In this document: positions 37,699 to 38,700 of the stretch, piece after piece | How the letters are laid out: every line of letters starts with the position of its first letter | Numbering within the stretch: position 1 is the stretch's first letter | NCBI RefSeq assembly: GCF_900215485.1 | Contig: NZ_OCMZ01000001.1 | Coordinates: forward strand, 434,001 to 498,000 | Source of the DNA: Nitrosovibrio sp. Nv4 | Lineage (GTDB): Bacteria; Pseudomonadota; Gammaproteobacteria; Burkholderiales; Nitrosomonadaceae | Direction: 5' to 3' | DNA: 64,000 nucleotides | The notes under the pieces: model-generated | What the model saw: only the letters and a program-made list of their open reading frames with translations | The model's database searches: none | Told to the model about the DNA's origin: nothing | Program-made: the position numbers and the translations under genes

Positions 37699-37727
37699 GG
37701 GAACTCTTTTGTAAACAGAAAAGTCTA
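37699..37727 (+). promoter_or_regulatory. Candidate sigma-E/ECF-type promoter of amoC
   Basis: GGAACTC (37699-37705), a 16-base spacer and GTCTAA (37722-37727) closely match the sigma-E consensus GGAACTT-N15/16-GTCTRA. It is in the right orientation, about 80 bases before the amoC start codon, in the 440-base region divergent from lolA. No equally good sigma-70 promoter was seen. Published work on Nitrosomonas europaea links a single amoC copy to a sigma-E stress response, which makes the match meaningful. Confidence 0.6.
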
Positions 37728-37805
37728 AAATTCGCTGGCGGAATGCATTCCGCCAACTGAATGTTGACTGTTATTTTCGAGTATTAGTCACAGGAGGAAA
37801 ACGAT

Positions 37806-38636
37806 ATGGCAACAACACTAGGAACGTCAAGCCAGGCGAAGTCAGGCGGTCGTGATTACGACATGTCGCTGTGGTATGACTCAAGGTGGTACAAGTTTGG
37901 ACTGATCACCATGCTGGCGGTGGCGATATTCTGGATCTGGTATCAGCGCACATTTGCATACTCGCACGGGATGGACTCGATGGAGCCGGAATTCGAGAAA
38001 GTCTGGATGGGATTGTGGCGTGTGCACATGATAGTGATGCCGATCTTTGCCCTGGTCACCTGGGGCTGGATCTGGAAGACGCGCGACACCAAAGAGCAAC
38101 TGGACAATCTTGACCCCAAGCTGGAAATCAAGCGTTACTTCTACTGGCTGATGTGGCTGGGCGTGTATCTGTTTGGCGTTTACTGGGGCGGCAGCTTCTT
38201 CACCGAGCAGGATGCTTCCTGGCACCAGGTCATCATCCGTGACACGAGCTTCACCCCGAGTCACGTCGTGGTGTTCTACGGCTCCTTCCCGATGTACATC
38301 GTGTGCGGCGTGGCGAGCTACCTGTATGCCATGACCCGTCTGCCGCTGTATGCCCGGGGCACCTCGTTCCCGCTGGTCATGGCGATTGCCGGACCGCTCA
38401 TGATTCTGCCGAACGTGGGTCTGAACGAATGGGGCCATGCCTTCTGGTTCATGGAAGAACTCTTCAGCGCACCGTTGCACTGGGGCTTTGTCATCCTGGG
38501 CTGGTCGGGACTGTTTGCAGGTGGCATAGCGGCGCAGATCATCACGCGCTACTCCAACCTGACCGACGTCGTCTGGAATGGCCAGAGCAAAGTCATCCTC
38601 AACAACCGCATCGTAGCGGAGCCGGTTAATCGATGA
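37806..38636 (+). CDS. amoC: Ammonia monooxygenase subunit C (solitary copy)
   Basis: AmoC is a membrane subunit of ammonia monooxygenase, which oxidises ammonia to hydroxylamine. The 276-residue protein is full length with about six helices. By alignment to particulate methane monooxygenase, both copper sites are intact: D136, H140 and H153 (in QDASWH and FTPSH), and N207, H211 and H225 (in LNEWGHAFW and PLHWGF). AGGAGG lies 8 bases before the ATG. No amoA or amoB follows, and a strong terminator begins 30 bases after the stop, so it is a monocistronic extra copy. It could replace AmoC of the amoCAB operon under particular conditions. Confidence 0.97.
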
Positions 38637-38665
38637 CTGACTGATTAGCTGAAGCTGCTTTACGG

Positions 38666-38700
38666 ACGCGCCGTTCCTCGTAAGAGGAACGGCGCGTTTT
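38666..38700 (+). terminator. Intrinsic terminator of amoC
   Basis: A perfect 14-base stem (38666-38679 with 38684-38697) and GTAA tetraloop are followed by TTTTCATTTT. It starts 30 bases after the amoC stop. Confidence 0.93.

What the first reader, a model, noticed from the sequence alone, without database searches (positions are those of the whole stretch)
37699..38700. Monocistronic amoC with a sigma-E-like promoter and strong terminator
A complete amoC with all six copper ligands lacks amoA and amoB. It is bounded by its own terminator and preceded by GGAACTC-N16-GTCTAA, a close match to the sigma-E/ECF consensus. This suggests a stress-controlled AmoC that swaps into the monooxygenase, similar to what has been reported for Nitrosomonas AmoC3. 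The promoter motif here was found by eye.
Basis: partly seen in the sequence, partly recalled or inferred. Interest (0 to 1): 0.75.

Follow-up and report, generated by a model that had tools for sequence, protein, structure and literature searches.

The report
Stress-type promoter on spare amoC gene
This ammonia-oxidizing soil bacterium keeps an extra copy of the ordinary ammonia monooxygenase subunit C gene behind what looks like an envelope-stress promoter, and nearly all examined relatives in the genus Nitrosospira do the same, which suggests that cells make more of this subunit when their membranes are damaged.

Summary
The window has a complete solo amoC (37806-38636) with all six expected copper-ligand residues, no amoA or amoB beside it, a 16-pair terminator hairpin, and GGAACTC-N16-GTCTAA at 37700-37728. 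GGAACT-N16-18-GTCTAA occurs twice in the 3.27-Mb genome, both times upstream of a solo amoC. In 23 genomes of the genus 11 of 13 exact matches precede amoC; the same hexamers at a wrong spacing give 2 matches. The amoC start lies beside lolA in 21 of the 22 genomes where lolA was found. All 21 have GAAC-N18/19-TC boxes 96-137 nt before the start, while spacer and flanks diverge. rpoE has a related upstream footprint.
This is not the divergent AmoC3-type subunit; that is another gene here (L001). The window copy encodes standard AmoC (98.9% aa), and in six genomes this copy matches its own operon copies better than its orthologues. Best reading: sigma-E-type control supplies extra ordinary AmoC under envelope stress. 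Sigma-E dependence and expression are inferred. New variant of a known kind.

The parts
37700..37706 (+). -35-like element GGAACTC (6 of 7 positions of GGAACTT)
   Evidence: positions 2-5 (GAAC) invariant in 21 of 21 lolA-linked loci
37723..37728 (+). -10-like element GTCTAA, after a 16-nt spacer
   Evidence: T2, C3 and A5 invariant in 21 of 21, first G in 20 of 21
37734..37805 (+). predicted 5' leader (start site inferred about 6 nt after the -10 element); begins with GCTGGCGG
   Evidence: GCTGGCGG at the same distance in 15 of 21 relatives including the window; start site not mapped
37736..37755 (+). perfect 20-nt palindrome TGGCGGAATGCATTCCGCCA, hairpin at the predicted 5' end of the mRNA
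   Evidence: strong in the window (z -4.0 for 60 nt, -2.4 for 75 nt; stem p 0.004) but only 4 of 21 loci reach p<0.05, so not proven genus-wide
37792..37797 (+). Shine-Dalgarno AGGAGG
   Evidence: read
37806..38636 (+). solo amoC, 276 aa, operon-type AmoC with all six expected copper-ligand residues
38664..38699 (+). terminator-like hairpin, 16 pairs, weak T tract
   Evidence: GC-rich inverted repeats seen by eye downstream of the six copies compared
36742..37365 (-). lolA, divergent neighbour that marks the conserved locus
39044..41341 (-). ftsK, convergent neighbour
   Evidence: found downstream in the six full-length copies

Best explanation
The window carries a conserved, separately controlled spare copy of the ordinary amoC. 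A sigma-E-type (RpoE) promoter at 37700-37728 drives a one-gene transcript that starts near 37734, begins with a hairpin and ends at the hairpin 38664-38699. When envelope stress frees RpoE from its membrane anti-sigma factor, extra AmoC with the housekeeping sequence is made without AmoA and AmoB, either to replace damaged AmoC in existing ammonia monooxygenase or to support assembly of new complexes. The coding sequence is kept like the operon copies by gene conversion, while promoter and locus are kept by selection. Shown: gene, motif, its conservation and specificity in the genus, synteny, and the homogenised coding sequence. Inferred: recognition by RpoE, the start site, induction by stress, gene conversion as the cause of homogeneity, and the use of the extra AmoC.
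For: Exact motif twice in the genome, both upstream of solo amoC. In the genus 13 exact matches in 10 of 23 genomes, 11 of 13 upstream of amoC; the same hexamers with gap 30-32 give 2 matches. In 125 genomes of the family 56 matches, 44 upstream of an amoC start: 15 clearly solo, 1 operon, 28 at contig ends or not determined; 12 not at amoC (54 examined, the last 2). Of 22 genomes with lolA, 21 have the amoC start beside it, all with a match of at least 10 of 13 within 150 nt (12 of 21 at 12 of 13); dinucleotide shuffles reach 10 in 4.9% and 12 in 0.06%. Boxes 0.82-0.86 identical among 11 representatives that I chose, spacer ends 0.35-0.37, upstream 0.24-0.32. rpoE is followed by rseA and has TGAACTA-N15/16-GTCT upstream in 22 of 22 genomes compared. 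In six genomes the lolA-linked amoC is 97.4-99.9% identical to its own operon copies and 87.2-95.8% to the same gene in the other five.
Against: No expression data were available. 6 of 21 lolA-linked promoters reach only 10 of 13, which 4.9% of shuffles reach; without conservation they would not stand out. The exact motif is absent from 13 of 23 genus genomes. The promoter of rpoE itself scores only 9 of 13, and its spacer is conserved too, so RpoE specificity is inferred from shared cores. In G014 no amoC was found within 1.5 kb of lolA. One operon (G007, L222) carries a near copy of this promoter, and one Nitrosomonas-like operon (L096) the exact motif, as does the named MAG contig L200, so the link to solo genes is not absolute. 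The strict motif is weak (9 of 13) upstream of N. europaea amoC3, for which sigma-E control was reported (recalled). The tool's reversed-pattern control gives more hits than the motif. That GGAACTT/GTCTAA is the E. coli sigma-E consensus is recalled.
Confidence: 0.62

Rival explanations
1. The copy gives constant extra dosage of AmoC from an ordinary promoter, and the sigma-E-like boxes are recognised rarely or not at all.
For: The coding sequence is the housekeeping one. AOB genes for ammonia oxidation are multicopy and homogenised, and dosage has been proposed as a reason (PMC6053082, passages read).
Against: The scan of 36500-40000 shows 2 sigma-70-type matches on both strands against 2.3 expected; the only one on the + strand, 37250-37277, is over 500 nt from the start. 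The -35 and -10 boxes are far more conserved than spacer or flanks.
Confidence: 0.17
2. Another ECF sigma factor than RpoE uses this promoter.
For: Two further proteins that look like ECF sigma factors by eye match sigma-70 region 4 (L072, L073), and rpoE's own promoter is only 9 of 13.
Against: The rpoE footprint shares GAACT, the spacing and GTCT; RpoE is present in 23 of 23 genus genomes. The other factors were not surveyed in the genus.
Confidence: 0.12
3. The copy persists mainly as a donor for gene conversion that repairs operon amoC; its own expression is unimportant.
For: It is 97.4-99.9% identical to operon copies in six genomes; the window copy keeps two residues (KEQ for N) that its operon copies lack.
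Against: A donor needs no conserved promoter or terminator-like hairpin.
Confidence: 0.06
4. It is a divergent stress subunit like N. europaea AmoC3 that replaces the normal subunit.
For: Solo gene with sigma-E-like promoter, like L001, which is 75% identical to the named N. europaea solo AmoC (L143).
Against: 98.9% aa identity to operon AmoC, against about 70-75% between divergent-class copies and the window AmoC.
Confidence: 0.03

Closest known systems
AmoC3 of Nitrosomonas europaea (NE1411), stress-responsive subunit (Berube et al. 2007; Berube and Stahl 2012; seen only as citations in passages; full texts not held; the sigma-E link is recalled)
   Same: Solo amoC with its own promoter, reported to be of sigma-E type; complete AmoC.
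   Different: AmoC3 is divergent; the window copy has the housekeeping sequence. The strict motif is weak upstream of N. europaea amoC3 (best 9 of 13; TGAACTT is visible).
Singleton amoC genes of Nitrosospira (Nmul_A0177, Nmul_A2467; F822_0485, 1530, 2742)
   Same: Same kind of gene; the position of the lolA-linked copy in G004 fits Nmul_A0177 (inferred from coordinates, genome name not given).
   Different: The passages read list them without promoter, class or conserved locus.
Concerted evolution of amoCAB in Nitrosomonadales (PMC6053082, passages read)
   Same: Coding sequences homogenised within a genome, with conserved synteny.
   Different: The passages read speak of the operons; here a solo copy with its own conserved promoter takes part.

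Membership tests
AmoC subunit family (PF04896) | Profile match over the full length | tested here: met
   430 bits against cut-off 26.7, positions 3-244 of 245
AmoC subunit family (PF04896) | Six copper-ligand residues | tested here: met
   D136, H140, H153, N207, H211, H225 read from the alignment; ligand identity recalled
AmoC3-type divergent stress subunit | Monocistronic | tested here: met
   flanked by lolA and ftsK on the other strand; transcript not mapped
AmoC3-type divergent stress subunit | Divergent from operon AmoC | tested here: not met
   98.9% aa identity
AmoC3-type divergent stress subunit | Induced in stress or after starvation, with phenotype when lost | not testable with these tools
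   no expression or mutant data
Sigma-E (RpoE) type promoter | GGAACTT and GTCTAA boxes at the right spacing, conserved | tested here: met
   12 of 13 here; at least 10 of 13 in 21 of 21; spacing control 2 hits; the consensus itself is recalled
Sigma-E (RpoE) type promoter | RpoE with RseA in the genome | tested here: met
   RpoE in 23 of 23 genus genomes
Sigma-E (RpoE) type promoter | rpoE's own promoter is of the same kind | tested here: inconclusive
   TGAACTA-N15/16-GTCT in 22 of 22 compared, but 9 of 13 on the strict consensus
Sigma-E (RpoE) type promoter | Transcription depends on RpoE | not testable with these tools
   needs experiment

The most novel reading that the evidence does not exclude
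Ordinary AmoC is the main, most strongly conserved target of the envelope-stress sigma factor in Nitrosomonadaceae: Nitrosospira (lolA locus) and part of Nitrosomonas (other loci, GGAACTT-N17-GTCTAA) hold solo copies whose coding sequence follows the operons while the stress promoter is preserved, so these bacteria treat loss of subunit C as a chief form of membrane damage and answer by making more of the same subunit rather than a special one.
Probability: 0.4. Interest if true: 0.7.

Novelty: new variant of a known kind. Interest (0 to 1): 0.55.

Why it matters
Why ammonia-oxidizing bacteria carry solo amoC genes is an old open question, studied mostly through the divergent AmoC3 of one species. 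Here a second class, with housekeeping sequence, a fixed locus and a sharply conserved stress-type promoter, makes a direct test possible. These copies are nearly identical to the operon copies: 15 of 21 are cut by a contig end, and reads from such paralogues cannot be told apart in RNA-seq (said of AMO operons in PMC6967387, passage read). That may be why the class has drawn little notice.

Tried and rejected
Rejected: the window copy as an AmoC3-type divergent subunit. A structured leader conserved genus-wide: the hairpin is strong in the window and a few relatives, but only 4 of 21 reach p<0.05 and the mean fold z is -1.06 against -0.03 for a control; left as suggestive. Rfam gave no match for 36800-39100. 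The 115-aa ORF 37413-37760 that overlaps the promoter has no Pfam match and is taken as spurious.

Corrected on the way: the stop codon of some operon copies was overrun and some upstream starts were chosen; identities were recomputed with trimmed reading frames. The tool's reversed-pattern control gives more hits than the motif itself (54 against 13 in the genus, my sum of the table), probably because the reversed hexamers are commoner (inference; not tested); the spacing control keeps the hexamers and is the fairer one. The rpoE upstream comparison holds 22 of 23 genomes; G020 was not picked up by the script. In one search ten of the extra Nitrosomonas loci were compared only downstream of the motif.

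Literature: in the listings and passages seen from the searches I found no description of a sigma-E promoter upstream of a Nitrosospira amoC; papers of subscription journals are mostly not held, so this is not proof of absence in print.

Full report
What is in the window. The coordinates are right. A 276-aa AmoC is coded at 37806-38636 on the + strand, with GGAACTC at 37700-37706, 16 nt, GTCTAA at 37723-37728, and AGGAGG 8 nt before the ATG. Pfam and PDB comparisons make it a full AmoC with the six residues expected as copper ligands (ligand roles recalled). lolA lies upstream on the other strand and ftsK downstream on the other strand. The hairpin 38664-38699 is far more stable than shuffles; its T tract is imperfect.

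Where it comes from. G018 is the nearest (LolA 97%). The window genome itself has no name here.

The gene family in this genome. There are seven amoC: three in amoCAB operons (L004-L006), the window copy, two nearly identical solo copies (L002, L003) and one divergent copy (L001). The window copy is 98.5-98.6% identical in DNA and 98.9% in protein to the operon copies; L002/L003 are 94.5% and L001 75% identical to it in protein. It keeps KEQ where the operon copies have N, and has a 5-residue C-terminal extension.

Is the motif more than chance? GGAACT-N16-18-GTCTAA occurs twice in 3.27 Mb: upstream of the window amoC (106 nt from the start) and 225 nt upstream of the divergent amoC L001. In 23 genomes of the genus there are 13 exact matches in 10 genomes; 11 lie upstream of an amoC, 9 at the lolA locus and 2 at the divergent class; the two others do not. 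With a gap of 30-32 the same hexamers give 2 matches in the same genomes.

Conservation of the locus. LolA was found in 22 of 23 genomes. In 21 of 22 the amoC start lies beside it; 15 of these 21 are cut by a contig end, as expected when nearly identical copies collapse in assembly; in G014 (260 contigs) no amoC was found within 1.5 kb. All 21 have a match of at least 10 of 13 within 150 nt of the start, with spacer 15 (9) or 16 (12). GAAC and the T, C and fifth-position A of GTCTAA are invariant. Shuffles reach 10 in 4.9% and 12 in 0.06%; the reverse strand reaches 10 in 1 of 21 and the 150 nt further upstream in 3 of 21. Among 11 representatives that I chose the boxes are 0.82-0.86 identical, spacer ends 0.35-0.37, upstream 0.24-0.32, and +6 to +15 is 0.62. 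Six loci, the N. multiformis-like group of five and G011, reach only 10 of 13. The genomes are related, so the 21 are not independent.

Which sigma factor? The genome codes RpoE followed by RseA (PF03872) and an ORF that looks like MucB/RseB by eye. Upstream of rpoE, TGAACTA-N16-GTCT (19) or N15 (3) is present in 22 of 22 genomes compared. It shares GAACT, spacing and GTCT with the amoC promoter but scores 9 of 13 on the strict consensus, and its spacer is conserved as well. RpoE is therefore the likely, not the proven, factor.

Wider family. In 125 genomes of the family there are 56 exact matches in 51 genomes; all were read (54, 2). 44 are upstream of an amoC start: 15 solo, 1 in an operon, 28 at contig ends or not determined. 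So the association reaches beyond Nitrosospira, at other loci. The named divergent amoC of N. europaea (L143) has TGAACTT upstream but no strong full match.

Coding sequence follows the operons. In six genomes with long contigs the lolA-linked amoC is 97.4-99.9% identical to its own operon copies but 87.2-95.8% to the lolA-linked amoC of the other five. Concerted evolution of amoCAB is published (PMC6053082, passages). What is added here is that a solo copy takes part while its promoter and place are kept.

Meaning. A divergent stress subunit (AmoC3 model) does not fit the window copy. Extra supply of normal AmoC under envelope stress does: a conserved stress-type promoter, a gene for subunit C alone, and a protein kept equal or nearly equal to the operon form. 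Whether the extra AmoC replaces damaged subunits or helps assembly is open. Nothing here measures expression. The leader hairpin may protect the mRNA in this strain, but its conservation is not established.

Noticed in passing
L002 1186-1338; also L003, L210, L144, L145, L157 (not in the window): A conserved 50-51-aa ORF resembling the AmoC N-terminus (46% over 28 aa) lies upstream of the third class of solo amoC; 84-88% identical to the L002 peptide in four other genomes. PDB chains of AmoC match it only weakly (best E 0.75).
   Followed up: partly
L222 (G007 contig C2, 40.9 kb): An amoCAB operon carries a near copy of the lolA-type promoter (GGAACTA-N15-ATCTAA, 102 nt upstream), so this promoter can be found at an operon.
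   Followed up: partly
38899-38918 and 38963-38982: Two copies (one with a mismatch) of the palindromic repeat GATACCCGCTTTCGCGGGTA between amoC and ftsK; none expected by chance.
   Followed up: no
41454-43890: Genes with iron-sulfur/CCG and FAD-binding domains, like the glycolate oxidase subunits GlcF and GlcE, next to ftsK (names by recall).
   Followed up: no
L138-L143, L154 upstream of divergent amoC: A short upstream ORF (in N. europaea MKASESGSCMRLIRLTAIFSATRNCPKSDFTLKPDW) appears conserved in the leader of divergent amoC in N. europaea and N. eutropha (sequences, translated by eye).
   Followed up: no
L172, L193, L194, L195, L201, L202, L204 upstream of operon amoC: Seven operon amoC loci of Nitrosomonas or related MAGs have GGAACAA-N15/16-GTC(G/A)AA 137-177 nt upstream, a weaker sigma-E-like match (10 of 13).
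   Followed up: no
L001 and L130 leaders: The divergent amoC leader in two close genomes holds two sigma-E-like elements in tandem, GGAACTT-N15-GTCTAA and GGAACCA-N16-ATCTAA, within a partly repeated sequence.
   Followed up: partly
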